This document shows, in pieces, positions 10,275 to 46,829 of a stretch of 64,000 nt of DNA. The position numbers were made by a program, and so were the translations under genes. The stretch's first letter is position 1; each line of letters opens with the position of its first letter. The notes under the pieces were generated by a model. The model ran no database searches and was not told where the DNA came from. It saw nothing but the letters and a program-made list of their open reading frames with translations. This DNA comes from Macrolepiota albuminosa (Eukaryota; Basidiomycota; Agaricomycetes; Agaricales; Agaricaceae): positions 1,538,769 through 1,602,768 of the forward strand of contig JAMWFC010000005.1 in NCBI GenBank assembly GCA_027475525.1, written 5' to 3'.

Positions 10275-11625
10275 CCATCGCTCTATTGAAAACCCTCCCC
10301 TGCAAAATCAAAGGACCCATCTAATGGTTCTGCTACAGCTTCCACAGGACCCAAGGACTCCTCCAAAGGTTCTGTTTCAGTCTGTACATTTGGGGAGGGG
10401 TTTTTTCAAATGTCTTGGGCAGCAAGGAGCTGGAGAAGAAGCTCTTCCTGCTCTAAAGCTGAAAGATAGCACACCTCCAACCCCTGGGGACAATATTGAG
10501 CGAAGTGACCAGGCTTCCCACAGCAACAGCAGAGGAGAGGAAGGCAGGAACATTGATGAGAGGCATCAACATCCATAGGTACCCCAAGAGGAAGGGGACA
10601 TGCCACAGGTACCTGAGCCAGCAATGGAGCATGAAATGGAAGGGAGGGCTGGATGGAATGACAAGCAGAAAAAGATGCCTGTGAGGTGGAGTGAGGGGCA
10701 GTTCCATGGTGGAGCTCAAGTCATAACTCCATGACCTGCCACTGATTCTGTGCTACCTGATACCAGGTCTCAATACTCATGTTATCAGGTTGTCCCTCAG
10801 CCATGCTGTCGATCTGGTCTATGAGAGAGGGAAGGAGGCCATCTCAAAAGGTGAGACAGAGCTGAAGACTGTCTGGATAGCAGGCCTGTTCAGCAAGAGC
10901 TCTGAAGGAGTCGATATACTCATCTAGGGTCTGCTTCCCCTGCCCATATCAATGAGGATCTTGGAGAGTGAGGGCTGCCACCTTAGCAGGGTCCAAGGGG
11001 AAGAACTCTGTCTGAAACTCCTTCTCAAACTGATCCCAACTTCCAAAACTCTCCACTCCTTCAGAGGGTTCAAGGGGAAGAACTCCATCCGAAACTCCTT
11101 CTCAAACTGATCCCAACTTCCAAAACTCTCCACTCCTCCAGGACATCGAAAAACTCATAGCATGTATGTTGAAGCTCGCCCAGACTTCATGTAAGAAAGA
11201 ACCCAAGTGATCTTGAGAGCATCAGAGGGGAAAGCCTCACTACTGAGCTGAATATAGGTGATGCAGGACTGCAGGAAATGCTCGCCTATCACTTGGTCAC
11301 CATTGAATGTGTCTGGAAGTGCTGGGCAAGGAATATTGGCATGAACTGGGGGAGAGGCCCCAAAGTGAGGGACTGGGGGTGTGTCAGCCCTAACTGGAGG
11401 TGCCTGGAGAGGGGTAGGAGTGAGAGGGAGGTGCTCTAAGAGGGCCTGAAGGGAATGGGAGATGGTGTCTGTGGCCTGACATAATCCAGCAAGTTCAGTG
11501 GTGTGGAGGGTGAGGGAAGCTTGAGTAGTCTGCACCTGAGTCTCCAGAGCAAGCAAGTGACCCCAGGCATCATCCTGAGGGGCAGAAGCATCCAGGGGAG
11601 TGTCTGAGGGGGCTGGTTGGGTCAT
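10275..11625 (-). pseudogene. Chromovirus gag (broken)
   Basis: Starts at ATG 11625 (MTQPAPSDTPLDASAP). The N-terminal 157 residues end in KITWVLSYMKSGRAS, a segment typical of gag in mushroom Ty3 elements. After a frame break the capsid continues with FGSWDQFEKEFRMEFFPLNP (near 11133). A zinc knuckle CCGKPGHFAQYC lies at about 10530. One of the breaks coincides with a 77-bp-period duplication (10988-11141) that looks like an assembly effect; other stops are real decay. Confidence 0.85.
10988..11141. repeat. 77-bp-period tandem duplication in gag
   Basis: 10988-11064 and 11065-11141 align at an offset of exactly 77 bp with about five mismatches, all transitions. It shifts the gag frame; omitting one copy rejoins the capsid segment to the conserved part downstream. 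Confidence 0.8.
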
Positions 11626-11739
11626 AGAAGCAACAGAGGGGCAGGGAGTAATCCAGTGGAGGAGGGACCTAAAGGGGCAAGAGAGGGCTCAAGCAGGCTG
11701 AAGGGGGCTCCCAGACTGAAATGTAGAGACTTGTTCTGC

Positions 11740-12258
11740 TGTAAGGGCAACCTCTAGAGGCTGTGGCTCAGTCACACAGCTGGCAGAGGGAGATCCAAAG
11801 TGTATTAGAGTATGTACTGACAATATCATAATAACTACTTACCTGGCAGAGGGAGATCCAAAGAGAACAAGTCTAGGGATTCCCTATGCCAGTTTGGACG
11901 CTTCTGGGGCTTCTGAAGCATGGGAAACAACTGTACAGTACAACAAAATCTTAAAAACTCAAAAATTGACTAACCAAACAACTGTGCAAACAAGGCAGGA
12001 AAACTCCGGACTTTAGAAGTCAGAAAGGCAAACTCTGGCTTATATAAGCAGTCTGGAAGCAGTGCTGAAGGGCCCACACTTGTCTGAATGGTAGCTAAAG
12101 AACCAGAGCATCTCAAGGGCTGAGAGTAGTACTAACAGATAGTGCTGAAAGAATAGAAACAGTAAAATGAAATAATGTCAGAAGAAATAAGAGAATGAAT
12201 GAAGGGAGAGTGAAAAGATAAGGAGTGAGAAAAGAAAGAAATGAGGAGTCCCCTGACA
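11740..12258 (-). repeat. 5' LTR of the chromovirus
   Basis: 519 bp, on the plus strand TGTAAGGGCAACC to CCCTGACA. It is the leader side of the minus-strand element; gag starts 115 bp inside it. Confidence 0.93.
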
Positions 12259-12882
12259 GTGCCTGCTACTTTCAACAGGACAATGACCCCAAACACAACT
12301 CCAAGAAGGCTGACAAGTGGTTTGAGGATAACAACTTTGATGTCCTTTGGTGGCCAGCCCAATCCCCTGATCTCAACCCTATTGAACATCTCTGAGAGTA
12401 CCTCAAGGAGCAGCTTAGGCAGTATGAAACACCTCCTTATGGTGTGCATGAAATATGGGAGAGGGTTGCAAAGGAGTGGGATGAAATACCACCAGAGGTA
12501 TGCCAAAGACTAATAAAAAGCATGCCTAGAAGGATTCAAGCAGTTATCAAGGCAAATGGAAAATACCACCAGAGGTATGCCAAAGACTAATAAAAAGCAT
12601 GCCTAGAAGGATTCAAGCAGTTATCAAGGCAAATGGAAGATATACAAAGTACTAAATACTAAAATTAGAGATGCTCAAAAAACTGTCCCAATGAGTGAAT
12701 ATTTTAAAATGGCTATTGCTCCATCAGTTTTGATCTTGATTACATAAACCTAGATTCATTTTATAGCTACGATGCCATAGTATTTTACATGATTTAATTA
12801 GGATTTTATATACTTCTCATCCTTCATGCCAATGTCATCTTTCAAAAAGTATGAAACATTGGGACAGTTTTTTGAGCCACTG
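12259..12882 (+). pseudogene. Tc1-type transposon relic: transposase C-terminus and right terminal repeat
   Basis: Reads FQQDNDPKHNSKKADKWF, then FWWPAQSPDLNPIEHL-like residues (here VLWWPAQSPDLNPIEHL), the last two catalytic positions of a DD34E transposase: exactly 34 residues lie between the D of QDN and the E of PIEH. The conserved W after PIEHL is TGA, a G-to-A nonsense change. A 77-bp duplication breaks the frame at 12561. The right end near 12882 carries a terminal sequence whose reverse complement reads CAGTGGCTCAAAAAACTG, followed by TA. A second inverted copy lies inside at about 12674-12694. The N-terminal half is missing where the chromovirus LTR starts. Confidence 0.85.
12484..12637. 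repeat. 77-bp exact tandem duplication in the Tc1 relic
   Basis: 12484-12560 is repeated without change at 12561-12637. Same period as the twelve other duplications in this window. Confidence 0.95.
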
Positions 12883-12944
12883 TATAAATTCTCCTACCTC
12901 TAGCAACAAGAAATTCCTTGTATATTTTCTAGAGAAAAACCACA

Positions 12945-13020
12945 TGAAAGTAGCATGACAGCTTTTCTTGTTCCCTTTTCCAGAGGAAACAAGTTCTGCT
13001 GCCAGCAGTGCAATGTTGCA
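12945..13020. repeat. Dispersed repeat D, copy 1
   Basis: A stretch of about 75 bp (agcatgacagc ... gaaacaagttctgctgccag) that resembles 20725-20800 in the same orientation. It replaces the expected continuation of the PEBP-like exon 3, so it probably marks the insertion that truncated that gene. Confidence 0.5.
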
Positions 13021-13387
13021 CACAGTGCTGAAGATTAGTGGACCTGCAGTAACTAAAGACACTTTTGTGAGGCCATGATCATGTTCCTGGAATTACCTAC
13101 CATTCATGGGGAGCTGAATGCCTGGTTGGAGAGAGATTTGCTCTCCTGTGGGCCCAGGAAAGGTGACATCTAGAAGTGCCTTTGGTTTAAAGTTGATAGA
13201 CAATGCTGACGGTATCTTGTCTGTATTAATCCAAGGTGGCATGTCATGATCGATCAACGCTTACAGAGGCAGCTTCAAAGGCTTTTTTGACAAGTCCCAG
13301 ACCAAGGCGGTTACCCTGATTACCGTGACTGGCAGCCAGCGTAGTGAAAGGCAGAAGAATGAGACTAAAGAGATTTGAGTGGACCAT
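13021..13387 (-). pseudogene. PEBP-like secreted protein gene, N-terminal part, truncated
   Basis: ATG at 13387. Exon 1 (13387-13265) encodes MVHSNLFSLILLPFTTLAAS, a clear secretion signal, then LGLGLVKKAFEAAS. Exon 2 (13215-13101) reads IPSALSINFKPKALLDVTF and ISLQPGIQLPMN. Exon 3 starts at 13052 with VTAGPLIF. Introns of 49 and 48 bp have GT...AG borders. The order KKAFEAA, IPSxLSINFxPxALLxVTFP, LPxNVTAGP is what I know from fungal extracellular phosphatidylethanolamine-binding-like proteins. The sequence leaves the family right after VTAGPLIFS and runs into repetitive DNA, so the ligand-binding core is lost. A TATA-like ttatatag lies upstream at about 13440. Confidence 0.7.
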
Positions 13388-16327
13388 GGTAAAAGTTTGA
13401 TCTCAGACTAAGGACGTAGACCGAGTAAGCCTTCCGCATCTTATATAGTCTACTCGAGAACTGGGGCGTGTGCCTGACTGCTGAGCGGTTGTTGCAGATA
13501 TTCTGAGCAGCATGGTGAGAAATCATGCGTTTGAGATTATTATTGCGTTCTGGAAGGAAAAAAAGTACATCACACGATTGGTTCGTGTAGCAGATAGATA
13601 AGTGCCAAAATACTTAGAACATGAGCAATCCAATAAGACGGTAGGTTGATGACTCCAGACGCTAGAACCTCGGACACGCTAATACCAAACCTTCGATTTT
13701 AATTTGTGCCCAGAGAGTACTCCGGCACTTCAAAGTCAGTGTCACATACATATGGTTTGTGAAGATTGGAAGACTATGTGATGTGAGGACAGGTCCTATC
13801 CTGTCGAGAGTTTATCTGATGGATCCCATGGAAATGTAATCCTGGAAGCCCAGGGTGGTTTCTAGAATTTTCAAGCGGCACGGATAACTGATTTTTCCAC
13901 TGCATCAACGAAGAGTACACGCAAAAGATGCGCCGGATGAGAATAGTATGTTCAATGACCTTGATAGTTCGTCAGCTTAAAGTTATTGGCTCCTGTACAA
14001 ATCATTGAGAACCGTTAACAATCCTATTGCGACAAAACCCTAATTTTCTGGAAGGTGAATCTAGTAATTGACATAGGAACTTACCATCACCCAATTTAAG
14101 AAAGATCGAACCTACTTAATGGGTGGCCACCATAAGATGAAGTCGGGGCGGATCTGTTACATCTGTTGATGGATATACTTGATGAACTAATGATATGACT
14201 TTCCAGGAGGAACAGCAGTGCCGCGTAGCTCCATGACGCAGAAGGGGGGGTACAGTTACTGATGACGCTACCCGGTTCAACTCAGAGGATACTATGTCAA
14301 CGTTCCAAGACGGTGGTGTGCACCCCCACGGGGGAGGAAGCAAAAGCGCGCGCTCTTCGGGCGACAAATCACAGATCAAGTGACTTTCGGATACTGCTCT
14401 GAACATGTACCTCGTATAGATAGCCACTTTCCAGTTTTAGTTCCGAGTCATCATATGATGGGACGTGTTTAGAACATTGCGCTGCTATTCGCAAGTAACA
14501 TGATCCCAACGTTGAGAACATTAATCATAATAGCATTCAACGACAAACCTGTTGGGAAATGCCATAGCCCATCAAAGACGCCACAATTACTTGACACATT
14601 CTGACTTGCTGTTTGATGGATGGTGGAGGCGAATATCCACAGCGCCGGACAAACAGGAGATAAGGTGGCTGGGCAAGTAGCCCCAAATGGCGAAAGGCGC
14701 ATTGCTCAGCAGGCTCCGTCGTCTACTCGGGTGTTATGGCAATCAGAATTCCGGAGATGCCAAAGCATATAGCGCTCAAGCGACCAGCGCTAGGCGCGGT
14801 ATGTTATTATAATGAAGTATCCAGAACCAAATCATGTTGAGCTCGATGGGGGTGCCACCGATTAATTTTCCACATGTAAAAAAAACCAGTCATCGCCATT
14901 TTCAGCATCGAACCATGTCGAGAATCACGAGGCTTGGTTCTCGTATTTGCCTTATGGTGCATAACTCGTGACGCTTCTTCCTGAACATCAAGTCGGAAGA
15001 TAATGGGCAACGTAATGGTCAGCCTTGACTGATGAGAGCTCGTCAATGATGGATGAAGACTTTGTTAGCACCCTGGAATGTGTGTAACAGATGACATGAG
15101 TCTCGTTGAACATCGATGTACAATGCCCAAATCAGAAAAACAGATGCATTGCACTAGCATCTGCACATAACTCGACTGGAAACTGATTTCTTTGCGGAGG
15201 GGAGACAAAGAGCACTGTAGCATTATACAAGACACTCTTAGCATAAAGAAGCCGAGGCAGGTGATCGAGAAACTGTACAGAATAGGATAGAAGAGAATTA
15301 CCGACGTGGTCTTGAATTTCTGCCGGAACCAATGCCGTATTTCTAGAATGGAGCCCCGATGAGACGACTGGACTTACATAAACATCTAACAGGGACAGAC
15401 GATAGTTGAAAGGAAAGATACATTAATTGACCGGATTTGTATTCCATTCTCAGTGCGCTGAGACAGAGGGGTTAATTGATGCTGTGAATTAGCTGGGAAG
15501 GCGAAGAAGAGAGCGAGCAGTTATAAATAGAATCAACGAATAGAAAATATTGGTATTCCAAAGTAACAGGACCAATCACTTTGCATGCAGTGCGTGAGGA
15601 TAATAATCTGTACGAGGGATCACAAGGTCATGAACATCGGCTGCCTACGTGGACGAAGCCTGAGAAAAGCACATTGCCAAAGCGCCGAAAAAAACATTAC
15701 TTGCCTGCAAAAGGACTACCAATATGGCATATACGAGAAAAAGGTCGTTGCTGTCCCACAGGATGCAACTTCTAGAGTCTTCCCTAAGCCATGGATGGCA
15801 ATTTCTCCGAATCAGCATCTGAAAGTCCCCATGATGAGCTGAAACGTGTTTAATGACGCCGAAGATTGGACCATGTGCTAAAAACATTCAGCGTCTCAAA
15901 TTCGCAAAAGCATTGATATGGAAAGTTTTTGAAGAGGAGACAGCCATTCAAGAGGAAAAGCTGGGTAGGAAGATCTGGATCATGGCGGGCTATGTTGCCT
16001 TCTAACATGTTTGACTCGGCGAATGTGGCCGGGTGGGCGCATTGTTTCAACAGCTTTCACTGCAGAAGAGCGGCATCATGTGTCATCAGGATCTGTGATA
16101 GATGGAGAACCTGAGCATAAGGGAATGGGTTGTTGTTTGTTGGTGTAGACATGATTGATATGGTGATGGAGAGTGATGGGTACATACTTGGATTTTCTCT
16201 CATCTGTCTTTTCTTTGTTGGTCGTATTCTTGCGGCTTTCCTCTGCAACCTGCTGTGTGCAGTTGATCACGCTCCTTTCAGCTGGCAGTCGGCCGTCTAG
16301 CCTGCTCCCGCCTGCGCAAATCCCGCC
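13388..16327. other. 2.9 kb without a gene I can recognise
   Basis: Base composition is host-like, not AT-rich as in the transposon debris. Several minus-strand reading frames of 60-100 residues occur (14116-14427, 15132-15332, 15645-15887, 15850-16050), but none shows a domain I know and I could not link them into a convincing spliced gene. It may contain an unrecognised short gene or gene remnants. The last about 200 bp should hold the promoter of the mucin-like gene at 16328. Confidence 0.4.
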
Positions 16328-19300
16328 ATGCGTCCTTGTATTTATGTTGCCACGCTTGCGCTCGCCTTGAGCAGCGCCCATGCCCAGCAAATCGCTCCCC
16401 ATCCCCGCCGTGCCCTCTCAAACAAGCTCCAGAGGCGCCAGATCCTCACCAACATTGCAGAGTCTGCTTTAGGTCTGCTCTCTTCCATCTCATCCTTTCA
16501 TCGCATCTCACCCACCCTCAGATGATGTTGATTTATTGGACAATGTCTTGGGGCTGCACCGTGCTACCTCCTCTCCTACTCAATCTTCGTCCTTCAACAT
16601 TCTGCCTGTCTCACCCAGTCCGTCTGACACCGTCACTCGCCGGTCCACGTCGACGTCTTCTTCCATCACGTCAGCACAGACGGCAGCCTCGGACTCGCCT
16701 ACTTCTTCTCATCTAAGCTTTACGAAATCTTCGAGACCATCCACGACTACCTTTTCCTCTTCCTCATCAGAATCTGCCGCTACAAATACAAGGGGCCATG
16801 GTACCATCGTCAGTACCGGCGACGGGGAGAGCACCAGCGAAGGTTTGGGCCAACACCGCACAAGCATAACATCTGTTTTGCCTGCCACCTCAGTTGTCTC
16901 TGACAGTCGTGGGCCAACGAGTGCTCCGACGCCTTTACCTCAAAAGCCAACATCCGGCTCGACTTCAAATTCGGAATCGTCAAACATTAAGTCCTCGCTG
17001 TCTCGCACTTTGGCAAGTTTGACTACGTCCGCGGAGTCGTCCACCGAGACAAACTCGGACAATGTCCAAACTACGTCTCATAATCACTCACCCACGTCCA
17101 AGGCGAGCTCGGAGGCTGTTGCAACCACGTCGGATCTTTCAACTACTAATAGTCAGACTAGTATTCACGGCCCGTCTTCCTCTCCCACGACAAGTTCTGA
17201 ATCTGTTCCAACCACGTCTGATGCCACTAGCCACGCTCCCAGTTTTACCCCCAAGATAACCTCGGATTCTTCGGCTACTACTAGTCAGACTGTTACTGAC
17301 GGCCTGCCTTCCGCGACAAGCTCTGAACCTGTTCCAACGTCGGATACTACTATCCAGGTAGTCAGACTGTTACTGACGGCCTGCCTTCCGCGACAAGCTC
17401 TGAACCTGTTCCAACGTCGGATACTACTATCCAGGCTCCTCATCATACCGATAATCCGATTTTTGACCATCATCATCATCATCACCCTCCCTCTTCGGTA
17501 TCTGGTACAACTTCATCGGATTCTTTGACTAGTAGTCAGATTTTCACTGATACCCATGGCCCGCATCATTCCTCCGGTGCCAACTCGGCCACTGTTTCAA
17601 CCACGTCAAGTTCTTCGAGGACTATTGTCCAAACTCCCACCAGGACCCAAGGCCCTATTCTTTCCATCATCTCGGAAGTCACGAGCGCTATCCTTCCTCA
17701 CCCTCACACTCGTCCCACCGAGACAGCCTCTGTATCTGGTCCAACTTCATCGGATGCTGTGACTAGTAGTCAAATTTCCAGTCAAGGCCCTATTATTTCC
17801 ATCATCTCGGAAGTCACGAGCGCTCTTCACCCTCACCCTCACACTCGTCCCACTGAGACAGCCTCTGTATCTGGTCCAACTTCATCGGATGCTGTGACTA
17901 GTAGTCAAATTTCCAGTCAAGGCCCTATTATTTCCATCATCTCGGAAGTCACGAGCGCTCTTCACCCTCACCCTCACACTCGTCCCACTGAGACAGCCTC
18001 TGTATCTGGTCCAACTTCATCGGATGCTGTGACTAGTAGTCAAATTTCCAGTCAAGGCCCTATTATTTCCATCATCTCGGAAGTCACGAGCGCTATCCTT
18101 CCTCACCCTCACACTCGTCCCACCGAGACAGCCTCTGTATCTGGTCCAACTTCATCGAATGCTGTGACTAGTAGTCAAATTTCCAGTCAAGGCCCTATTA
18201 TTTCCATCATCTCGAAAGTCACGAGCGCTCTCCACCCTCACACTCGCCCCACCGAGACAGCCTCTGCATCTGGTCCAACTTCATCGGATGCTGTGACTAG
18301 TAGTCAAATTTCCAGTCAAGCTCCTGGCAGTCAAGGAGGCCCTATTTCTTCCATCATCTCACAAATCGAGAGCATTCTTTCCCCCCACAGTAGCTCCACG
18401 AAGACAGCCTCGGTATCTGTTTCAACCACATCAGAGTCTTTGACTAGTACTAGCCAGACTGCTACTGGTAGTCAGGACACGTTGTCTTCCACTCGCTCTC
18501 GGACTCGTTCCGATTCTCATCCCTCGAGTACTACCGAGGTTCCTTCCTCGATTACGACGTCGTTTTCACATGGGTCTACAGTGGTTCCTCCTAGTTCTTA
18601 CTCTTCAGTCACTCCTTCATCTCTGCCAGTATCAGGTAATTCTTCATCTGTTAGCGCAAGCATCCACACCGTCTCCCCGTCGGTTTCGAGTTCTCAGTCA
18701 CCTTTGCCATCCAGCAGCAGCCGCAACAGCAGTATCGTAATCACCTTCCCCAGTCCCATTCCTTCCAGCTCAGGCGTAAATCCTGGTACAGGTAGCGGGT
18801 TCACGACATCTCACCTTCGCACAACTACTGCGGTCTCGGTAACGTCGGATCTCTCTTTCGTGCTGTCAGTGTCCTCACTGGTGGTGGCACCTTTGGCCAC
18901 TACAACGTCGTCGCCGACTATTACGAATCCTGATATGGCCATGACTACCCTTGAACCGATATCCGAGTCAGGTCCCCAGATCACAAGTCTGCCTGTTCAG
19001 CCACTGCCCACGGGACTTCCAGTAAGGATCTATCCACCAACTCTGTTAGATTCCAGCCAGGTTCCGAGCCAATACGTAGCGATCAGTATTCTTTTTAACG
19101 AGGCGTTAAACTGGCCCTTCGTCGTGAAGCATCAAGTTTCTTCTAGTCAGATATTTGCTTTGCTTCCTGTAATCATCCAAACCGCATTAAATATCACAGG
19201 TAAGATTCATGCTCCATTTCTAATCATCTCAATTAAACCTCATTACTTCCAGCTGCTCAGGTGGAAACATTCGCGCTGCAAGTATTTGTTCCCGCCACAT

Positions 19301-19929
19301 ACACCGGCCCCAAGGACGAGAACCAGCTTGGCACAACCTATATTGGATACATCTCCGGCGACCTAGTGGGGCCGCTCGAAGCCATGATCAAGAACAAGAA
19401 ATCGAAGTTCTATACTGGAGTTTCTAATCCCGTCGCTCAAGATCTCGCGAGTCACGTCGACTCCGGCTTCAGCCTCAATGCTATCCCGAGCCCTGAAGGC
19501 GCAGGCTCAGTGGGTGCACCGAATCCAAGTTCAGGCGCTACTTCAGAAAGCGGTAAATCAAGACAGGATGCCATCATCGGTGTCGTCAGTGCTCTTGGCG
19601 GCATTGCCCTCCTGGTTCTTGCGTTCCTCCTCTATCGTTCGTGGAAACGCCGCCGTGAACTCGCCCATCGCCGTATTTCCGACCCGCCCAACGATGAGTC
19701 CGTCGGCGTTCGTCCCGAGGGACGAGATTTCGATCAGGATAGCGTGGGAGGACAACGCCGTCGCAGCTTCTACTATGCAGAGGACTCGTTGCGTGGGTTC
19801 CAACAGCAGAGCACCGCTGCTGACAGCAACCCCAGCGTGTCGCCACAACAGAGCATGGTTCAGAGGCGAAATCTCACCACCAACATGATATCAACACCGG
19901 TCCTTCGCGAGAGCAGCTTGCAATGGTAG
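16328..19929 (+). CDS. Transmembrane mucin-like surface protein (signalling-mucin type)
   Basis: Three exons: 16328-16472, 16522-19199 and 19253-19929, with GT...AG introns of 49 and 53 bp. The start MRPCIYVATLALALSSAHAQ is a signal peptide. A long Ser/Thr-rich region follows, with five tandem 45-residue units (17651-18319). Then comes a conserved-looking extracellular block (YPPTLLDSSQVPSQYVAI to SHVDSGFSLN). One membrane segment (IIGVVSALGGIALLVLAFLL) is followed by a basic stop-transfer KRRRE and a cytoplasmic tail of about 100 residues. This architecture fits fungal signalling mucins of the Msb2 type at the plasma membrane; the Msb2 link is inference. A 77-bp duplication at 17359 breaks exon 2. 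Leaving it out gives one frame of 1140 residues, so the break is probably not real. Confidence 0.8.
17282..17435. repeat. 77-bp exact tandem duplication in the mucin gene
   Basis: 17282-17358 is repeated exactly at 17359-17435. It shifts the frame by two and ends the reading frame at 17528. Skipping one copy joins the frame precisely to the one that continues to 19199. Confidence 0.95.
17651..18319 (+). repeat. Coding minisatellite, 4 x 135 bp + 129 bp
   Basis: Units start at 17651, 17786, 17921, 18056 and 18191, each beginning with codons for GPI(I/L)SIIS. Each unit is 45 residues and ends SSDAVTSSQISSQ; the fifth lacks two residues (HP). Units differ by few bases, so recent homogenisation is likely. 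The period is a multiple of three, unlike the 77-bp duplications, so this one is a true protein repeat. Confidence 0.93.
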
Positions 19930-20540
19930 ACCACTTCCCCCTGGTACACTATATGACCTCTTTTTCTTCTTCTTTTCTTTTGTTTTGCTTTGGATGGAGC
20001 GCTTCTTTTGATTTGATTTTTCAGCACCGCTGCGAATGTTAAGAAAATTATGCCAACATATACCTGTTCTTTATTCCGTTCGCCCGGTACAATTTTATGC
20101 TCTTTGTACGTTTCTTGCCGGGACGACCCATGGGTATGGTTATTTATATATTGGAGGTATCAGCCTCTAGTTCCTATCAGAACTCTTGCGTTATACATAT
20201 CCACAGTACAATTTCTGCCATCGATATCGACTTTTTCGGGTTACACTACGTAGTTGCATGCTGGCCAGGCCCCTGTGGTGTAACCAGTCGTGCGCCTCAA
20301 TTGTTTCACTAATTTGTAGAAGCTGTTTTTCCTGATGTGTCGTTTTTCCATTGAATGCTAATGGTTTTTGTTCTATTGTGATGTTTTCTTGGTTAATTTC
20401 TGCAAGTGCTGTGCCGACTACGACATCGGATCGATCACGCACAGTAAATGATGGAAGATAAAGGGAATGAGGATACAGCGGTGATTAAATATGCAATGTT
20501 TGGGAATGCACCAAATAATCAATCGACAGACAGACCCATC

Positions 20541-20717
20541 ATACATTAACATATTTCTCAAGGAAAAAGGCTTAAGACAATGAGAAATGCCTTTTTCCAA
20601 GGTTCCAAGGTAAAAAGTGGACAAAGAAGTAGTATGACACATTTCTTTGGCAACTTTTTGCCTTAAAAAAGGCATTTTTCCATTGTCTCAAACCTTTGTC
20701 CCTTGGAAATATGTATG
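20541..20717. mobile_element. Fold-back (MITE-like) element
   Basis: Two inverted arms of about 50 bp: 20541-20598 (catatttctcaaggaaaaag...) and 20665-20717, whose reverse complement reads catatttccaagggacaaag. They enclose a loop of about 65 bp. No coding capacity. It could be a non-autonomous DNA transposon. The ends atacat/atgtat are themselves inverted, but a target duplication is not clear. Confidence 0.6.
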
Positions 20718-20724
20718 TTGGAAA

Positions 20725-20800
20725 TGGCATGACACATTTCTTCATCACTTTTTCTGATGGAAACAGGTTCTGGTGCCAGCAGTGTGTTTTTACCTAGTGT
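20725..20800. repeat. Dispersed repeat D, copy 2
   Basis: Similar to 12945-13020: atgacacatttcttc and gaaacaggttctggtgccag align with atgacagcttttctt and gaaacaagttctgctgccag. Confidence 0.5.
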
Positions 20801-24769: not shown

Positions 24770-29968
<5,199 letters not shown>

Positions 29969-36003: not shown

Positions 36004-36006
36004 AAT

Positions 36007-36158: not shown

Positions 36159-36312
36159 GCCCAGGAACTACAGAACGCCACTGTAGACGCATTTCCTGAT
36201 CTCTTCCCGCATTCCCTCGATTATAGCGCCGACGAGCCCAGGAACTACAGAACGCCACTGTAGACGCATTTCCTGATCTCTTCCTGCATTCCCTCGATTA
36301 TAGCGCCGACGA
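36159..36312. repeat. 77-bp tandem duplication in the Ty3 leader/gag
   Basis: 36159-36235 repeated at 36236-36312 with one mismatch. Confidence 0.93.
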
Positions 36313-36460
36313 CCCCTTAGCGTCGCCATTTACCGTACCGCAACCAATCACCCCAATTACTCCGCTAACACCTCTTTCTCAACTCATTTCGCTTACCCCG
36401 TCGCCAATCTCTAGAACTCCTTCCCCACTACCGCTAACAGAACTCGCCAACACAGTCGCT

Positions 36461-39400
36461 ATGGAACAACAAGTCCAGCGCATGCCGCCACGTAACCACT
36501 TCTCGGCACCGAAATGGGACGAGTCCAAGCCACGGGAGCTTTCCCAATATTTCAAGGAATTAGAGTATCTATTCAGGGATTGTAACATTACCGACCACAC
36601 ACAGATGAAGGAGTACGCGGCAAGATACGTATCGTATGACACGGCAGAGACGTGGACAGGTCTTACCGAGTTTGCCGCCTTTGTTCCTGCCGCCCCGCCA
36701 GCTCCAGCTCAAGGCGCTTCGTATGAGGACTGGAAGACGGCAGTAATCCAGCTGTACCCTGGCGCAGAGGAGGCTACCCGATACACGGTAAACGAGCTCC
36801 AGAAACTAGTACAGGAATCGTTCGACAGTGGCACATCGTCTCTTGGCGCATTCTCCACGTATTACCGCGAGTTCCAGAAGATCGCTAGGTGGTTAGTACA
36901 AAACGGCAAGCTCTATATCAACGAGGAACGTCCACGTATTACCGCGAGTTCCAGAAGATCGCTAGGTGGTTAGTACAAAACGGCAAGCTCTATATCAACG
37001 AGGAACGTTGCCTATTTCAGCAAGGCATCCCGACGTCACTGTGGACTCGTATTGCTCGTCGCCTAGAGATAGTTCATCAGGCCCATCACCCTGACGAGCC
37101 CTATAACGTTGCCGACGTCTTTGAAGCCGGTAAATGGGTTCTCAAGGGAACAGACACTGGCGTTGGACTGCAGCGCGCTAGGACGAGCCCACCACCTGAG
37201 CGAACTAACGGTATAATTCCCATCCCGCCTCCTGTTGCCGACTTCGTTAAGAAAGAGGAGCTCAATGCTGCTATTACCGCCGCTGTCGCTTCCGCTATGA
37301 CGCGTATTGAAACCATGATCACCACCAACCTCACTGCTAACCGACCCGCTAACGTACCCGCACCTGGCCCTTGCCACTTCTGTGGGGAAATTGGCCATAC
37401 TATGACTAGAGGACGCTGCGTCCCGCTAACGTACCCGCACCTGGCCCTTGCCACTTCTGTGGGGAAATTGGCCATACTATGACTAGAGGACGCTGCGTAA
37501 CTTTAGAAAACTATATTTGGCAAGGAAGGATTCGACGGGCCATCGACGGCAAGATAGTTCTCACCACTGGCGCCATCATTCCCAACTACCCAGACAAGAA
37601 GTCCTTCCAGGAGCGAGTTGATGAGTGGCATAGGCGCAACCCAGGACAAATCGTTACCGGCACGCTATCTGGCAACGCCAACCCCGACCCTGAACAGGCG
37701 ACCCAACAGCAAATGATCCAGGACAAATCGTTACCGGCACGCTATCTGGCAACGCCAACCCCGACCCTGAACAGGCGACCCAACAGCAAATGATTCATGA
37801 GGTCTTACACTTCGACAGCGTTGGCGACCATCCTACTTTCTCGCAGGAAGAACATATTGCCAAGCTCCAACAGGAGTTGGATTTGCTTAAGAATCAGGTC
37901 TTTGATGGGGTTGAAGTTAAGCAGCCTAAACAACCTCTTAAAGGATACAAGCCAATGCCTCCCGCTAGCAAGTTACCGACTCCTGCTCCTGCCGCACCGC
38001 CTGCCACTACCCCTGCTACTACCTCAGAACCATCGTCGTCCGCTACCGCTCCTGAACCGCCCTTGCCGCCTCTCCATCCCTACTCAGGGATTCCCGACCG
38101 TTATCACGCACCAGCACAACAAAACTTTGCCGCTCCCGAGAAACGTCCTGAGGGTGGTTACCGACCTACCGCGCCAATTTTCGATATAGAGAAATCAAAT
38201 CACGTCTTTAGCCGCATCATGAAAACTGCCGTCACCTTATCAGTAGAAGAACTTTGTAGTATTGCTCCCGACGTCCGCAACCAAGTCAAGACGGCAGTCA
38301 CTCCTCGACGACCCTTGGCGACGACCGTTGCCGAGGTCGAGGATCTCGACGACGCGCTTCCTGGTTTCTCTGTTACCATTGACTCTCCCGACACCAATAA
38401 ACCTCTTGCCGACACCGTTGCTAACGCCACCTCTGTGGATCCGGTGGAGACCTACCTCAGGTCGGTAGACCATGGAGAAGACCCCGCAATCCTTACCGTC
38501 GCTCAAGAATCGCACGCTATTCGCTCAGTCGCGCTAGGTCGGTAGACCATGGAGAAGACCCCGCAATCCTTACCGTCGCTCAAGAATCGCACGCTATTCG
38601 CTCAGTCGCGCTAACCGTAGACAATAAGCACGAGGTAGAAGCAATTGTGGATAGCGGGTCTCAAATCATTTCTATGGCAGCTGAAGTCGCTAACGATCTG
38701 GGCCTTATTTACGACCCTACCATTATACTAAACATGCAGAGTGCTAACGGCACGGTAGACAGATCCCTAGGACTCGCCAAGAATGTGCCGTGCACCCTTG
38801 GCGACATCACGTTTTATCTTCAAATACACATCTTACGTTCACCAGCATACGACTTACTACTCGGCAGACCCTTCGACGTCTTGGCGCGATCAGTCGTCAA
38901 GACAGTTACCGACGAGGAAACGACCCTCACAATTAGCGACCCAAATTCCGGAATCCGACGAACGGTGCCAACGTTCCCTAGGGGACAACGAAAAGGCGCC
39001 CGCGCTAAGCCCCCGGAGTTTACCGACCAACACGCCAACGAGCCTCCCCACCGGTGTTTTCACAGACCATCGAGGAGGTGATTGGCGATGATCACGGAGA
39101 TGTGGCGCTAACGCTGGAATTTGACCATTCAACTGGTCTTGTAACTGTTTTGTCTACTGCTTTTCTTGACGAAGATGTTTTAACTACTTTACCCACTACC
39201 GACGCAGAGCCTTCCCAGAAAAATCAAAACATTACCGACTCCTCTCTTGCCTACTTGTACCTTACTGCTTCTGAATCTTTTCAGAATATTGCGTCTACCG
39301 ACACGTATCTCACTACGCTTCCCGGAGCCTCGTCTCCTGCCGTTCTTGGACTTGCCGCTCCTCAGGCTACAGTTCCCCTTTCCACCTCTGTTTATAACCA

Positions 39401-42400
39401 GGCTAACGCTCCCAAAAGGAAAGGGGTTCAAGTTAAAAAGAAATATAAGCCAGTTGCGCTTAAAACAAAACCCGTCGCTACGCACTCTCCCGAGACGTTT
39501 AGGATTGAGCGCCAGATTATTGGCGACCCTCTTGCCGACATGCCGACTTTATCACCGAATCCGCCACCCTTTCAGCCCACAGGACGTTTTACCGCAGAAC
39601 GCCAGCAGCAGTTCGCCAAGGAGCACGACACAGGATTTTTGACCCCAGATGAGTTGAAAGTCCTTACCGACCTCGTCGCTAAGCAAGATAAAGCCTTTGC
39701 TTGGGAGGACTCAGAACGCGGTAGTCTACGTACAGATTTCTTCCCACCTGTTGTTATCCCGACCATTCCTCACGTGCCGTGGACTGAGCACAACCGACCG
39801 CTACCACCTGGGATCGAAGCCGAGGTCTGCCAAATCATTAGGACCAAGATTAAGTCTGGCGTCTACGAACCCTCCAATAGCTCTTACCGCTCCCGTTGGT
39901 TTTGTGTCCTCAAAAAGAACGGCAACCTACGTATAGTTCACAGTCTTGAGCCGCTGAATAGAGTCACCATACGATACTCTGGCATACCACCTTTCCCTGA
40001 TCACGTTGCCGAGTCCTTTGCCGGGCGCATTTGTGGCGCCACCCTTGACCTCTACGTTGGCTACGACGAACGCCTGATACACCCTTCTTCCCGGGATCTC
40101 ACTACCTTTCAAACTCCGTTTGGCGCCTTGCGCCTAGTCACCTTACCGATGGGCTGGACAAACTCAGTCCCTATATTTCATGACGACATCACTTTCATCC
40201 TCCAACCCAAGATACCGCATAATGTCCTTAGCTTCATTGATGACGTTGGCGTTAAAGGCCCCAAAGACTGGCGACTCGTAAACGGCTTACCGGCGACCCA
40301 TCCCGACAACTCCAACATTCGCTTAGCACTATGGGAGTTCTTCCAGCTGCTCAATCGAGTTCTCCAACATATGAAGTATAGCGGTGGTACGTTTAGCAGT
40401 CACAAACTCCTCCTTTGTGCGCCAAGGTTCAAGATACTTGGTCACATCTGCACTCCCAACGGTCGCATTCCCGACGAGTCTTGCTTAGCACTCCTAGAGC
40501 GATGGGGTCCTTGCCGCGACTTATCTGAAGTCCGCGCCTTTCTTGTCAAAAACTTTGCCCATCGCGCACACACCCTTAACCGACTCACCCGCACTAATGA
40601 GCCCTTCGAATTTGGGCCAGACCAGGTCACTGCCCAACGCGACTTAGTAAAAGCCTTACAAGACGCCAAGCCCCTAGTCCCCATTGATTATACCTCTGCT
40701 GACCCAGTTATCTTGGCGGTGGATACCTCGTACATTGCCGTTGGCTACTTCTTGTGCCAATGCCTTAGCGACAATCAGAAACAGCAACGCTACAACCGTT
40801 TTGGGTCTATCACGCTAAACGACCGGGAATCTCGCTACAGCCAGCCTAAGCTAGAGCTCTATGGACTCTTCAAAACCTTCCGGTCGCTAAAGATGTACTT
40901 GATTGGCGTACGGAATCTGATTGTTGAAGTCGACGCTAGGTACATCAAGGGCATGCTGCAGAATCCCGATATCCAGCCATCCGCTAGCATGAACCGGTGG
41001 GTAGTCGCCATCCTCATGTTTCACTTTGAGTTGGTACACGTCAAGAGCTCTTTCCACGGCCCAGATGGACTCTCTAGGCGACCATGGCAGCCTGGCAACC
41101 TGGCAGTGGACTCACAGGCTGATAGCGATTTCGAGGACTGGATCAACCGCTTACATGGTTTCGTGCACCTCATACAACAGCCAATCCCCCTATTACGACG
41201 GCAACAGCCTAGGACTGGATCGACCGCTTACATGGTTTCGTGCACCTCATACAACAGCCAATCCCCCTATTACGACGGCAACAGCCTACCAGCATCTTTT
41301 TACATCCCATCGTCCCTTACCGCCCTGAGATCTTTAGCGCACCCCTCACATTCTACACGGCAAGCATCCTTGGACAAGACTTGCCTCCAGTAAAAGTCGT
41401 ACAGGAACCCCAGTCGCTAAGAGAAGACAGCAGAAACCTGACCTACGATGCCGTTCCCCGATCCGCCAAAGCAAAGGCAGAAGACAGCCGCTTGTTAATC
41501 GTTGAACAATGGCTACAAGACCTTAAGCGACCCGCAGGCCTTACCGACGAACAATACGCGACCTTTATCCGCTATGCTACCCGCTTCTTCTTTACCGACA
41601 ACCGCCTCTGGCGACGAAATCGAGATGGCGCTCACAAGCTGATCATCAAGCCAGAAAGTCGCTTACGAGTCTTGCGCGCCATGCATGACGAGCTAGGACA
41701 TAGAGGTCTGTACGCTACCCGAGCTTCTCTGTTAGAACGATTCTGGTGGCCACACGCTAGTGCCGACATCGCCTGGTACATCAGGACTTGCCACCTCTGT
41801 CAAATTCAACAAACGCGCCAAGTGCTCATCCCGCCAACCGTTGCAACGCCAGCTCCCCTCTTCAGCAAAATCTACGTCGATACCATGCATATGCCCAAGT
41901 CTGGTCGCCGCCAACCGTTGCAACGCCAGCTCCCCTCTTCAGCAAAATCTACGTCGATACCATGCATATGCCCAAGTCTGGTCACTACAAGTACATCATT
42001 CAAGGTCGTTGCTCGCTAATCCACTGGCCTGAATTTCGAATGCTTCAGAGAGAAAATACCGACGCGGTCGCCAAGTGGCTATTTGAGGACGTCATTTGCC
42101 GTTGGGGAGCGCTAAGAGAAATCGTCACGGATAATGGGACGTGGTCGCCAAGTGGCTATTTGAGGACGTCATTTGCCGTTGGGGAGCGCTAAGAGAAATC
42201 GTCACGGATAATGGTGCACCAATTATCAAAGCGCTAACATATCTCGCCAAGAAGTACAACATCCACCACATTCGAGTATCTGGCTACAACAAGCGCGCCA
42301 ATGGCCTGGTAGAGAGACCACACTTTGATGTTCGGCAAGTGCTCTTTAAGGCAGTCGATGGCGACGAGTCTCGTTGGAGTGAAGCGACTTATTCAGTATT

Positions 42401-43007
42401 TTGGTCGGAAAGAGTTACCATTCGTAAGCGCATGGGTTGTTCTCCCTATTACGTGGCTACTGGCACCCATCTGTTACTCCCTGCCGACATTATAGAAGCG
42501 ACCTATCTTCAGCCAGCACCCAACAGCATCTTAGCGACTACCGACCTTATCGCCAGACGAGCTATTGATCTCCAGCGAAGGAAAGAAGATTTAGAGCGAC
42601 TCCACGAGGTAGTCTTTAGCGCCCGTCGCCAGGCAGCCCTACGATTTGAAACCGAGCATAGCGCCACTATCAAAGATTACAACTTCCCGAGAGGGGCGCT
42701 AGTGCTTATGCGCAACTCCAAAATCGAGACCTCATACAATAAGAAAATGCACCCACGCTATCTTGGACCTTTGGTAGTTATCTCCCGTAACCGTGGAGGC
42801 GCCTACGTGCTCTGTGAATTAGATGGTTCAGTACTACATCGACCTGTTGCCGCCTTTCGCCTATTGCCGTATCTCGCCAGGGAACAACTCGACTTGCCGC
42901 TTGAAGCGCTAGATATCGACACCGCCAAGTTACGAGAACTTGAAGAAACCGAATTATTGGACGATGATGACTTACCGACTCTAGTTGAAGAAGAAGAAAA
43001 TGATTAG
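36461..43007 (+). CDS. Ty3 Gag-Pol polyprotein (frame broken only by 77-bp duplications and one C-run indel)
   Basis: First ATG 36461 (MEQQVQRMPPRNHFSAPKWD), although the frame is open from 36033. Domains in order: capsid (YFKELEYLFRDCNI, LVQNGKLYINEE); zinc knuckle CHFCGEIGHTMTRGRC (near 37470); protease EAIVDSGSQIISMAAE (38640); RT (FCVLKKNGNLRIVHSLEPLN, catalytic FIDDVG at 40215-40235); RNase H (ILAVDTSYIAVGYF, KLELYGLFK); integrase with HHCC finger (HDELGH, CHLCQ) and core (YVDTMHM, VTDNG, NGLVERPH); a C-terminal LGPLVVISRNRGGAY module. Seven 77-bp duplications each shift the frame by two; leaving them out joins all pieces. One more shift at about 39040 is explained by four instead of five C in cctccccacc. 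The corrected product is about 2000 residues in a single frame. Confidence 0.93.
36854..37007. repeat. 77-bp exact tandem duplication in gag
   Basis: 36854-36930 equals 36931-37007. It creates a stop soon after 36931 in the gag frame. Confidence 0.95.
37345..37498. repeat. 77-bp exact tandem duplication across the zinc knuckle
   Basis: 37345-37421 equals 37422-37498; it duplicates the CHFCGEIGH knuckle. Confidence 0.95.
37641..37794. repeat. 77-bp exact tandem duplication in gag
   Basis: 37641-37717 equals 37718-37794. Confidence 0.95.
38459..38612. repeat. 77-bp exact tandem duplication before the protease
   Basis: 38459-38535 equals 38536-38612. Confidence 0.95.
41134..41287. repeat. 77-bp tandem duplication after RNase H
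   Basis: 41134-41210 repeated at 41211-41287 with one A/G difference. Confidence 0.94.
41830..41983. repeat. 77-bp tandem duplication in integrase
   Basis: 41830-41906 repeated at 41907-41983 with one difference at the first base; it doubles the KIYVDTMHMPKSG segment. Confidence 0.93.
42061..42214. repeat. 77-bp tandem duplication in integrase
   Basis: 42061-42137 repeated at 42138-42214 with one C/T difference; it doubles the segment before VTDNG. Confidence 0.93.
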
Positions 43008-43436
43008 AAAAGACAGTACTGATAAGCTCTTATTTTTCTATTACTTACCTTACTTATCTTTCTTGCCGTGACTTACTATACTATATTCAACAGACATTTC
43101 TTTACATAGTCAAGTCGCAGCGCTAGCGTGTCGCCAACGCTTAGCGCCTTGCGCAACTCTCGCCAAGGGTTTTTTGCTATGATGATCTACTGAGCGTTTC
43201 TCTTTTCCTCAAAATTTGTCTAAGTCCCTCACATACTATTGCTCTTGCTAAAAACCTACCTTAGAATACTTGCCGCTTGCCTTCTCCTTGCTCTACTTTC
43301 TCTGCTTTCTGCAACTGCGCTAACTCAGGTTCTGGGACTTATCCGTTCACTTCCAACGAAACGGCAAAAAGGTGTATAACAGGCAGTAACAAAAATAAAA
43401 TATTTACACAAGCGGCCTGTCTACGCTAAGGTCCGC

Positions 43437-45865
43437 TCAATCGCTATCGTCGTCCAACGGCAGGGAACTATCCGATACCGGCAAAGAAGAGTCACGCAGA
43501 GGTAGGAGGTCGCCCAGCAAGATATTATTGGAGGTCTGCCAATCCATGGCGGCTTGGCAGTCGTCCTGGTAGTCGCGGAGAACGCGAAGGCTGCGACCAA
43601 GGTTGGAGTAGCGCAGCCTTAGCGCCATTAGCTGCCCTCGGACTCGTTCCCGCTCCCGACTCATTGTGGCCTCCATCGTTGCCGCTCGCCTCGAATATCG
43701 CTCCAGCATCTCGCGAGGATTTAGCGCTACGACTGGGTAAACGAGATCCTGCCCCAGCTACTGGAAAGCGTTGCCAGTGACCGTCGGCTCCGGCTGAGGG
43801 GTCCAGGCAGGATTAACCCTGGCGATGACGGGGCGTCTTGGCTCCAGCCCGGCAACATCCTCTGGGTCCGACACTTCCCATGGGGCGACATTACCGTAGG
43901 AAGGTAGCCAGCGCCACTGAGGCTCCTCCTGGGCAACTTCTGCCGCTGCCTCCCCTGCTCCTGCTACCACCTCCTTTGCTCCTGCCTCCTCGTCGCCTTG
44001 GCGCTGCGTCGCCAAGGTTTCTTCCTCCTCCTCTTCAGCATCCTCATCCCCTCCTGTTGCAGCCCCCTCTGCCTTCTCCTCCTCCCCCATCTCGACATCG
44101 ATGGGAGCCTCTTCCCGTTCCTCTCGAGGTGCCGTGTCGCCAACCGCTTCCCGCTCTCCCTCCTCCTGCTCCTCGCCAAGGGACCTCGCCGCCAAATGAA
44201 TAGGCGACAAGAGGCCACTTGGGCCTGCCTCAGAATCGCGAGGAGGCAGGCGACTCGCCGCCAACGCCTTCTCGAGGTCCTCCATCTCGGTATCCTTTGG
44301 CGCTGGCGAGGGGGAAGGCGACGACGAGACCACGCGAGGACGTTTTGCTTTGCCCTTCCCCTTGCTTGGGGAAGGGGCTTGTCGTTTTTCTGGGACCGAA
44401 GTCCCTTGGCGCTCTCCAGCGCCTCGATTGCCGACTGTCTCTGACCCATCTCCTTGGCGCGTCGGCAACGCCAAGGAGGCACGTCCAATGGCTGCCATTC
44501 CACCGGCAGCGACCTTTTGCTTCTGACCCTCCACAAACTCCCTTGCCCTCCTCATCAAAACAGCGCGCGAGAACGTTTTCTCGACGAGAGCGTCTGGCAC
44601 GCCGCCACGCTCGCGACTCTTCGCCCCGTCGATAGTACAAGCGCGTTTGAGGGCGCCACAACGATAGCACGGCTGGGCCCCAGTCGGGAACCAACAGCCT
44701 TCTGGGTCGTTATCCGCCCAGCACTTATCACACTAGCGCTATAAGTCAGCAAGAGCTCAAAAAGACAGAAGAGTTACTTGCCGCTCCACGCGCCTCCTTA
44801 AATGCTTGCCGGGTCGCCAGGGAAACGGTCTTCTTTCCCTTCATCTCCTCCATTACGACCCCGGCCTCCTGTCCTTTGTCAAGGACAGCTTCCTCCCGAC
44901 GCGGCAAAAGCAAACCTCGCAGTTCCTTGTCATCAAAGGAACGTTGTGTTGGCGCCTACAGAAACTTAGTAATTCACGTCCAAAGAAAAAAGTACCACTC
45001 ACCGCGTATTGAGGAGCCGCCTTGCGACTCTGTGAATGTCGTTAGCGACCGTCGGCAACGGCAAGCAAAATCAGCACTTACCTTGCGTTTGGAAGCACCT
45101 GCCGGCTTCCTCGGCGAGCCCGACTTGCTAGCCGGCAGCACTGGGCTCGAAGTGCTACCGGCGCGACCTACCTTGCCGGATCCCTCTGCTACCGCCTGCC
45201 TCTCAACGGCAGGCGCCTTCCCCGCGGCAACTTCCTCCATCTCTGCCGCCAACGCTGCCACCCTCTCTCGCTCCTCTATCCCCCTCATAATCTCGCGGGC
45301 GTCCTAGGAAACCTCCTCTTGCCTTGCCGCGATCTCTTCTTCTACCTGCATACGCGCCAAGGGCGCCAACAACTCTTGCTTGCTATGGGGAGACAGATCA
45401 GACCACAGCTAAGTTAGAAATCAAAAATCAGAGATACTTACTCAGGCGCGGGAGCGCTTACTGTCATTGGCAAGGCACCAGACAAAATATCCTCCAACTC
45501 GTCCTCGATTGTAGGGACGGGAGGAGGCGCCTGGCAATTCGATCAGCTAGCGATACGACAGGCAACAAAAGCAACTTACGAAACGGGAGAAGGGCGCTAA
45601 CCACTCGGCGCCAAGATTGTCAACGTACCGCGCACGGCACCACTCCCGCACTTCAATCTCTCTGTCCCAGCCCATGCCAAGGACACGAACCTCGTACCAT
45701 CGCTCAAGAAGTTTCATCACGCCAACGACTAATTTTTGGGGCGCCTCGGCGCCAACGCCCTCAATATGACGGATGAAATTGTTGGCCTTCGCTATGTAGG
45801 CGTACGCCGCCTCTTGGGCAGCCTGAGAGGGAACAGGGGGGCGGAGTTGGAATGCGGAAAGACAT
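43437..45865 (-). pseudogene. Antisense multi-exon gene of the Ty3 element with a Zn2Cys6-like cluster
   Basis: Runs opposite to gag-pol. Start ATG 45865 (MSFRIPTPPP), stop 43439-43437. Six exons in consistent phase: 45865-45580, 45530-45442, 45382-45082, 45020-45003 (18-nt microexon), 44955-44782 and 44732-43437. The intron before the last exon is GC...AG (gcaagt donor); the others are GT...AG. About 720 residues: an N-terminal helical block (AAYAYIAKANNFIRHIEGVG, WYEVRVLGMGWDREIEVREW), a C-x2-C-x8-C-x8-C-x2-C-x6-C cluster (CDKCWADNDPEGCWF...), a basic KGKGKAKRPRVV stretch like a nuclear localisation signal, long acidic runs, and a C-terminal coiled-coil-like block. Breaks: one extra C in a C6 run near the start, TAG at about 45304-45306, TAG at about 43758. 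The TAGs look like C-to-T changes, so decay is recent. Function unknown; a DNA-binding regulator is my inference. Confidence 0.75.
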
Positions 45866-46024
45866 TTTATTTAAAAATGAGCGCCAGGTAAATCAGGGGG
45901 GGGAGAAGTGAAGTCCAAACTTATGCGCTAGGACTATAAACAAAATCTCAAGAACGCACGGACCACATGTCACAAAAGCGGTAACGGTAACCATATTTGG
46001 TGACTGAGGACAGTCAATTTTTCA

Positions 46025-46036
46025 GTTGGGGGGAGA
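46025..46036 (+). promoter_or_regulatory. Polypurine tract of the nested Ty3 element
   Basis: gttggggggagatga-type purine run ending directly at the 3' LTR start; expected primer for plus-strand DNA synthesis. Confidence 0.75.
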
Positions 46037-46318
46037 TGATAGGACCCCATACAGGATCAGCGCATCAACGGCAGGCTACGGCAACGTGGCACCAACTCAA
46101 AATACCTTAGCGCGCGCTAATTATCTAATTTTGGCGATATTTGACGGCCGCGCACGGCAAGAAGCAGATCCGATCAGTGATAGCGCCGATGGCAGACAGA
46201 ATGACAACTGACAGATGGCATCAGTCACTGACGACAGCGCTTAGCGAGAAGTCTGATGATCTATCAAAAACTGACGGACAGCTTGGCGTTTGACCTTGGC
46301 GTCTGACACCGCTTAGCG

Positions 46319-46472
46319 CCTCGATTCGGCGCCTGACATTGCTAAGCACTTTGGACAGACAGAAGGGTGATGAATTGATGGTTTAGCACCGCGATCCTCG
46401 ATTCGGCGCCTGACATTGCTAAGCACTTTGGACAGACAGAAGGGTGATGAATTGATGGTTTAGCACCGCGAT
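46319..46472. repeat. 77-bp exact tandem duplication in the 3' LTR
   Basis: 46319-46395 equals 46396-46472. The 5' LTR has a single copy. Confidence 0.95.
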
Positions 46473-46675
46473 CTGCCGCCTGGTGGTGCCAAGGGTCTTG
46501 AAAAGACGGTAGGGATCTGAAACCGTTGGAGCTACCCCTATGAAATTTTCCAGTTTACTGCACTTTGGCGATGGTTGGTCACTGGCGACGGTGAACTCCT
46601 TGTAGTATATATATTACTTACCGACTTGTACATACACAAGGGACGAATAGACCAGAGTTCACTACTCCCCTTTTC

Positions 46676-46829
46676 TCAGTCTCCCTTACGCTCAAGAGCT
46701 CATTTACGCTACGATCGGCAACGTCAAACTCATCGGCAGTTGCAGACGTTCGTCAGTCTCCCTTACGCTCAAGAGCTCATTTACGCTACGATCGGCAACG
46801 TCAAACTCATCGGCAGTTGCAGACGTTCG
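46676..46829. repeat. 77-bp exact tandem duplication in the 3' LTR
   Basis: 46676-46752 equals 46753-46829. The 5' LTR has a single copy. Confidence 0.95.

What the first reader, a model, noticed from the sequence alone, without database searches (positions are those of the whole stretch)
10988..46829. Thirteen tandem duplications with one identical period of 77 bp: probable assembly artefact
Offsets measured directly are all 77 bp: first copies start at 10988, 12484, 17282, 36159, 36854, 37345, 37641, 38459, 41134, 41830, 42061, 46319 and 46676. Twelve pairs are exact or have one mismatch; the one at 10988 has about five. They occur in unrelated sequences (two Ty3 elements, a Tc1 relic, a host gene). 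Leaving out one copy restores the mucin frame, joins seven gag-pol pieces and makes the Ty3 LTRs 941 bp each. No biological duplication mechanism gives one fixed length. A de Bruijn assembler run with k=77 leaves neighbouring contigs that overlap by exactly 77 bases; failing to merge them would produce this.
Basis: partly seen in the sequence, partly recalled or inferred. Interest (0 to 1): 0.9.

Follow-up and report, generated by a model that had tools for sequence, protein, structure and literature searches.

The report
77-base duplications are assembly seams
The 77-base tandem duplications in this mushroom genome are almost certainly not biology: they look like seams where assembler pieces overlapping by exactly 77 bases were laid end to end without being merged, which breaks genes and distorts transposons.

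Summary
All 13 pairs are at offset exactly 77. The signal reaches beyond the window: in 248,537 sampled bases, period 77 has 46 near-identical tandem pairs and every other period from 40 to 200 at most 1. Exact runs are 77 bases plus chance extension (58 runs); untrimmed 77-base joins in a synthetic genome give similar lengths. Related copies elsewhere often have one copy or a pair at another position. The doubled 77-mer adjoins a base at which paralogs differ in 7 of 10 testable junctions, against 801 of 5,522 control positions; per junction-copy pair, 22 of 28 against 1,028 of 7,913. That is what a de Bruijn graph with k = 77 predicts. The scaffold shows the same failure on a larger scale: 281,288 bp, including window 1-51161, occurs twice around exactly 100 N, identical wherever compared, 77-bp pairs included, so the small seams probably predate scaffolding. 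SPAdes is the likeliest source (inference). Reads and assembly records were not available.

The parts
10988..11141 (.). 77-bp tandem pair with 5 mismatches, in a multicopy element
   Evidence: 28 of 40 scored related places show the two query halves overlapping by 76-77 bases, i.e. one copy
12484..12637 (.). 77-bp tandem pair, exact (run 78), in a multicopy element
   Evidence: the 77-mer occurs singly at 9 other places, each followed by G where the window has A
17282..17435 (.). 77-bp tandem pair, exact, in a Ser/Thr-rich (mucin-like) ORF
   Evidence: the 77-mer is found nowhere else except in the scaffold-level duplicate
36159..36312 (.).
   Evidence: first copy found singly in L032 and L035 (L036 is identical to L035), with no different base within 8 on either side
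36854..37007 (.). 77-bp tandem pair, exact (run 78), same element
   Evidence: single at 6 other places (some near-identical to each other); T in the window against C in 6 of 6 right after the 77-mer shifted by one
37345..37498 (.). 77-bp tandem pair, exact, same element
   Evidence: single at 4 other places, 2 of 4 with a different next base
37641..37794 (.). 77-bp tandem pair, exact, same element
   Evidence: not searched genome-wide
38459..38612 (.). 77-bp tandem pair, exact (run 78), same element
   Evidence: single at 2 other places, both with a different base just before the 77-mer
41134..41287 (.). 77-bp tandem pair, 1 mismatch, same element
   Evidence: not searched genome-wide
41830..41983 (.). 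77-bp tandem pair, 1 mismatch (first base), same element
   Evidence: not searched genome-wide
42061..42214 (.). 77-bp tandem pair, 1 mismatch, same element
   Evidence: not searched genome-wide
46319..46472 (.). 77-bp tandem pair, exact (run 78), in the 3' LTR
   Evidence: the 5' LTR has one copy here; this 77-mer is not found elsewhere except in the scaffold-level duplicate (the one-base shift was not searched)
46676..46829 (.). 77-bp tandem pair, exact, in the 3' LTR
   Evidence: single at 2 other places, 1 of 2 with a different base just before the 77-mer
1..51161 (.). part of a 281,288-bp block present twice in contig C126, separated by 100 N, identical wherever compared; the block ends at window 51161

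Best explanation
Each 77-bp pair is a seam between two neighbouring pieces of a de Bruijn graph assembly built with k = 77. In such a graph, pieces end at k-mers with more than one predecessor or successor (branch points, typical of repeats), and neighbouring pieces share that k-mer. Some step joined pieces that follow each other but did not remove the shared 77 bases from one of them, so the branch k-mer was written twice. Later polishing, or joins of two different repeat copies, would account for the few mismatches (inferred). The seams were probably already inside the pieces that were later scaffolded, because a 281-kb apparent contig overlap around a 100-N gap carries the same seams in both copies (the duplication is shown by sampling; the order is inferred). 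SPAdes, whose usual k series includes 77 (recalled), is the likeliest assembler (inferred). The joining program is unknown.
For: One sharp spike at period 77: 46 pairs against at most 1 at any other period 40-200 in 248,537 bases. Exact runs of 77, 78, 79, 80, 81, 82 number 32, 19, 4, 2, 0, 1, against 32.6, 16.3, 6.1, 2.0, 0.6, 0.2 expected for an overlap of exactly 77 with chance extension. A synthetic graph with untrimmed k = 77 joins gives 38, 19, 2, 2 (77-80) for 61 joins, and no run of 40 or more at offsets 20-299 before joining. Branch test, corrected for N runs and repeated loci: 7 of 10 junctions with an exact single copy elsewhere in the fetched loci diverge at the adjoining base (control 801 of 5,522); with two or more other copies, 6 of 6 (control 387 of 1,775). 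Per junction-copy pair, 22 of 28 against 1,028 of 7,913; all known copies diverge in 4 of 6 against 114 of 1,775. Ten of ten other full-length matches to one LTR-element stretch have their own 77 pair at positions differing from the window's. One copy at related places: 21 of 40 scored for 12484, 28 of 40 for 10988. The 3' LTR has both extra copies, the 5' LTR neither. 281-kb duplication around a 100-N run. [quoted passage not shown] CheckV reports many terminal repeats of 55, 77 and 99 bp and says they likely correspond to assembler k-mer lengths (PMC8116208).
Against: Of the seven window 77-mers searched genome-wide, two (17282, 46319) have no other copy in the assembly except their scaffold-level duplicate, so no branch is visible there. 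Three of ten junctions show no branch against the one other copy held. The branch control is not low where many copies are known: positions with 3 or with 4 or more other copies branch by chance in 139 of 359 and 73 of 118 cases, so the 6 of 6 alone is weaker than it looks; the 12484, 36854 and 37345 junctions fall in the class of 4 or more. Eight of the 46 pairs have 1, 2 or 5 mismatches, which a bare overlap does not give. Reads, depth and assembly metadata could not be examined.
Confidence: 0.96

Rival explanations
1. Real tandem duplications made in the cell (replication slippage, repair, or a transposon-related process) with a fixed unit of 77 bp.
For: Most pairs are exact and head to tail, as recent tandem duplications are.
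Against: 46 of the 49 near-identical pairs of period 40-200 in the sample have period 77. The units tend to end at bases where paralogs differ, which no known cellular process would sense. Related elements carry pairs at other positions or none. The two LTRs of one element differ by exactly 154 bp.
Confidence: 0.01
2. A different assembly artefact: read-length or gap-filling seams (for example 77-base reads or fills) rather than a k-mer overlap.
For: The program is unknown; runs of exactly 100 N suggest scaffolding; one pair begins right after a run of N (L013), though that run may be a withheld stretch.
Against: Read ends or gap edges have no reason to fall at bases where paralogs differ.
Confidence: 0.03

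Closest known systems
k-mer-length terminal repeats on circular contigs (CheckV, PMC8116208; passage in an Extended Data legend)
   Same: A repeated sequence exactly as long as the assembler's odd k (55, 77, 99), left by the graph
   Different: There the copies lie at the two ends of one contig; here they lie side by side where pieces were joined
Overlapping contig ends of SPAdes graphs (Unicycler, PMC5481147; passages)
   Same: The same kind of end overlap; Unicycler removes it, here it seems to have been left in
   Different: Unicycler describes the correct handling, not the error
False duplications in genome assemblies (PMC9516828; passages)
   Same: Assembly error that can pass for a biological gain; the 281-kb block resembles their false duplications on the same scaffold
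   Different: The causes named in the passages are heterozygosity, sequencing errors, incorrect gap filling and other assembly errors; those passages do not describe one fixed unit length

Membership tests
k-mer overlap seam of a de Bruijn assembly | Duplicated length is constant, odd, and equals the overlap of graph pieces | tested here: met
   46 of 49 near-identical tandem pairs with period 40-200 in the sample have period 77; run lengths fit 77 plus chance extension. That 77 was the k used is inferred
k-mer overlap seam of a de Bruijn assembly | Occurs across unrelated contigs and sequences | tested here: met
   11 of 17 contig starts and 3 of 20 interior 1-kb stretches from 11 contigs
k-mer overlap seam of a de Bruijn assembly | The 77-mer is a branch vertex: paralogs sharing it differ at the adjoining base | tested here: met
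   7 of 10 junctions against 801 of 5,522 controls; 22 of 28 junction-copy pairs against 1,028 of 7,913; not visible for 17282 and 46319, nor for 3 of the 10
k-mer overlap seam of a de Bruijn assembly | Other copies of the same element lack the pair at that position | tested here: met
   5' against 3' LTR; 16 further places, 5 and 38 align over most of the length and were not inspected
k-mer overlap seam of a de Bruijn assembly | No read spans both copies | not testable with these tools
   no reads held
SPAdes as the assembler | Assembly record or log names SPAdes with k = 77 | not testable with these tools

The most novel reading that the evidence does not exclude
A cellular process in this fungus makes exact 77-bp tandem duplications throughout the genome, preferentially in repeated DNA and at positions where repeat copies begin to differ.
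Probability: 0.005. Interest if true: 0.95.

Novelty: not a real feature. Interest (0 to 1): 0.2.

Why it matters
The sample has roughly one seam per 5 kb (46 in 248,537 bases; 3 in 20,000 interior bases). Carried over to 100 Mb, that would be on the order of 15,000-20,000 false duplications; the sample is not random, and the interior count alone allows about 3,000-44,000 (Poisson limits, recalled). Since 77 is not a multiple of 3, a seam inside a coding exon shifts the frame, so gene models, pseudogene counts, transposon intactness and LTR lengths from this assembly need care. At least one block of 281 kb also appears doubled.

Tried and rejected
Tried without result: Rfam scan of the window (no match). 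Literature searches for side-by-side k-length duplications or for this genome: in their listings I saw no paper on this exact error or this assembly, only the precedents above. Passages of PMC10853769, PMC6745192 and PMC9215042 were read and did not bear on it. The organism was not identified beyond a likely agaric: named relatives of a recombinase ORF are led by Hypsizygus, Lyophyllum and Tricholomella; an SMC3-like ORF has Arthromyces and Trametopsis among its named relatives. The Termitomyces cryptogamus paper (passages) describes a 70-Mb CANU assembly in 64 contigs, which does not fit.

Considered and rejected: real tandem duplication and non-k-mer seams (see rivals).

A control of mine was faulty and was replaced. 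One search dropped N, dropped loci identical to, contained in or near-identical to others (L049, L050, L051, L052 beside those left out before), and the 150-bp and later C126 stretches; its rates are higher (801 of 5,522; 387 of 1,775), and adds the per-copy count. The Fisher values rest on the faulty controls. Those are only a guide, since neighbouring positions and related copies are not independent. I lowered confidence from 0.97 to 0.96 for this.
Full report
What was checked. The window is bases 1,538,769-1,602,768 of contig C126 in a 100.1-Mb, 129-contig assembly. Named relatives of two of its ORFs are mushroom-forming fungi. All 13 pairs are at offset exactly 77; eight are exact, four have one mismatch and one has five. 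Tandem Repeats Finder reports the same 13.

It is not local. Seventeen 10-kb contig starts hold 33 runs of 40 or more matching bases at offset 77, in 11 of the 17; other offsets appear only as arrays in L010 and L011 and one run at 76 in L012. Twenty interior 1-kb stretches from 11 contigs hold three more and no other run of 40 or more (one of 32 at offset 50 in L083). Counting pairs of at least 90% identity in window, contig starts and interior stretches together (248,537 non-N bases), period 77 has 46, and 135, 76 and 50 have one each among periods 40-200. Of the 46, 38 are exact, 6 have one mismatch, 1 has two and 1 has five. The sample is not random: a chosen window and contig starts dominate it, and 13 of the 46 come from the window and 13 from one other stretch (L012).

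The length behaves as an overlap length. Of 58 exact runs pooled from window, contig starts, interior stretches and 11 loci of one LTR element, 32 are 77 long, 19 are 78, 4 are 79, 2 are 80 and 1 is 82; an overlap of exactly 77 with chance extension predicts 32.6, 16.3, 6.1, 2.0, 0.6 (81) and 0.2 (82). Fifteen of the 73 pooled runs of 40 or more are shorter than 77, i.e. interrupted by a mismatch or by the end of a stretch. A synthetic genome of random letters with a diverged repeat family, cut at a random 15% of the branch vertices of its k = 77 graph and laid end to end untrimmed, turned 61 joins into 61 runs at offset 77 (38, 19, 2, 2) and had none before.

Relatives in the same genome. For 36774-37088, ten other full-length matches (of 40 places scored among 453 candidates; L027 and L028 are identical) each have their own 77 pair, at locus positions 1498-1651, none at the window's 1581. 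They are full-length because they hold a pair in that stretch, so they say nothing about frequency. For 12404-12717, 21 of 40 scored places (of 723 candidates) show the two query halves overlapping by 77 bases, i.e. one copy; one more shows one half only, and 16 others align over most of the length and were not inspected. For 10908-11221, 28 of 40 (of 269 candidates) show both halves, overlapping by 76-77 bases; there the left half is 96-99% and the right half 87-94% identical, so this odd pair with five mismatches may join two different copies; five other places align over most of the length. For 46239-46553, the 38 other scored places (of 1,298 candidates) align over most of the length at 80-93% and were not inspected. 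Within the window's own element, the 5' LTR spans 942 aligned bases and the 3' LTR 1,096; the difference is 154, and the rows show the 3' LTR doubling 77 bases twice.

The branch test. If a pair is a de Bruijn seam, the doubled 77-mer should be a vertex with more than one neighbour: other copies of the 77-mer should differ at the base just after or just before it. Seven of the 13 window 77-mers were searched genome-wide. Five occur singly elsewhere, and all five branch: 12484 (9 of 9 places), 36854 with the one-base shift its 78-base run allows (6 of 6, some of these near-identical to each other), 38459 (2 of 2), 37345 (2 of 4), 46676 (1 of 2). Two, 17282 and 46319, occur nowhere else except in their scaffold-level duplicate. 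Over all fetched loci, 7 of 10 testable junctions (of 58 exact ones) branch, against 801 of 5,522 control positions; with two or more other copies, 6 of 6 against 387 of 1,775. By number of other copies the controls branch in 414 of 3,747 (1), 175 of 1,298 (2), 139 of 359 (3) and 73 of 118 (4 or more). Counting each other copy by itself, 22 of 28 at junctions against 1,028 of 7,913; positions where all known copies differ are 4 of 6 junctions against 114 of 1,775 controls. The three failures each have one other copy to compare with. Earlier control figures were too low and are withdrawn.

The larger seam. Window 7200-37199 is present with 100% identity 281,388 bases upstream in the same contig, 77-bp pairs included. 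Sampled stretches of 100-150 bases are identical at eight distances from 3 kb to 230 kb upstream of the window start, and the shared block ends at window 51161, inside a recombinase-like ORF; four stretches further right in the window differ. There copy 1 stops, a run of exactly 100 N follows, and copy 2 begins; copy 1 has further sequence upstream and copy 2 continues downstream. I read the N run as a scaffold gap (withheld stretches also read N here): two pieces whose ends overlap by 281,288 bp laid one after the other. It is the same kind of failure as the 77-bp seams, one level up, and since both copies carry the same seams, the small ones were probably made first. A real recent tandem duplication of 281 kb is not excluded by sequence alone.

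Effect on genes. 77 is 2 mod 3. The mucin-like ORF 16536-17528 is followed by ORF 17525-19366 in the frame that a 77-base step would explain. In the second LTR element several ORF ends or starts lie in or within about 110 bases of a pair (ends 37482, 38545, 41393, 42019; starts 36889, 37790, 42141).

Known precedents. [quoted passage not shown] CheckV's authors saw many terminal repeats of 55, 77 and 99 bp and tied them to assembler k-mer lengths (PMC8116208, passage). That the SPAdes k series includes 77, and that its pieces share k rather than k-1 bases, is recalled. The joining program is not known.

Noticed in passing
C126:1027254-1308541 and 1308642-1589929 (the second covers window 1-51161): A 281,288-bp block is present twice in one contig around a run of exactly 100 N, identical wherever compared: apparently an unmerged overlap of two contigs.
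   Followed up: yes
C90:1489638 and 1253315 (L027, L028); C110:2742769 and 2698721 (L035, L036): Same-strand pairs of loci within one contig, 236 kb and 44 kb apart, identical over the 3.2-3.3 kb held; they may be further doubled blocks. A similar pair in C107 (3106179 and 2689666) is not identical over the 317 bases held (L049, L050).
   Followed up: partly
window 10988-11141: The pair with five mismatches: its left half is 96-99% and its right half 87-94% identical to the 28 places that show both halves, so the join may link two different family members.
   Followed up: partly
L013 (C40:1-5463): The contig begins with 5,463 N and a 77-bp pair starts at the first base after them; the N run may be a withheld stretch.
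   Followed up: no
L109 (C126:1026116-1026215): A second run of exactly 100 N, about 1 kb before the first copy of the 281-kb block.
   Followed up: no
window 47220-51270: ORFs of an apparent tyrosine-recombinase element: the 414-aa ORF at 50026-51270 has basidiomycete relatives, several named 'DNA breaking-rejoining enzyme'; neither it nor the 608-aa ORF before it has a Pfam match at E 0.001.
   Followed up: no
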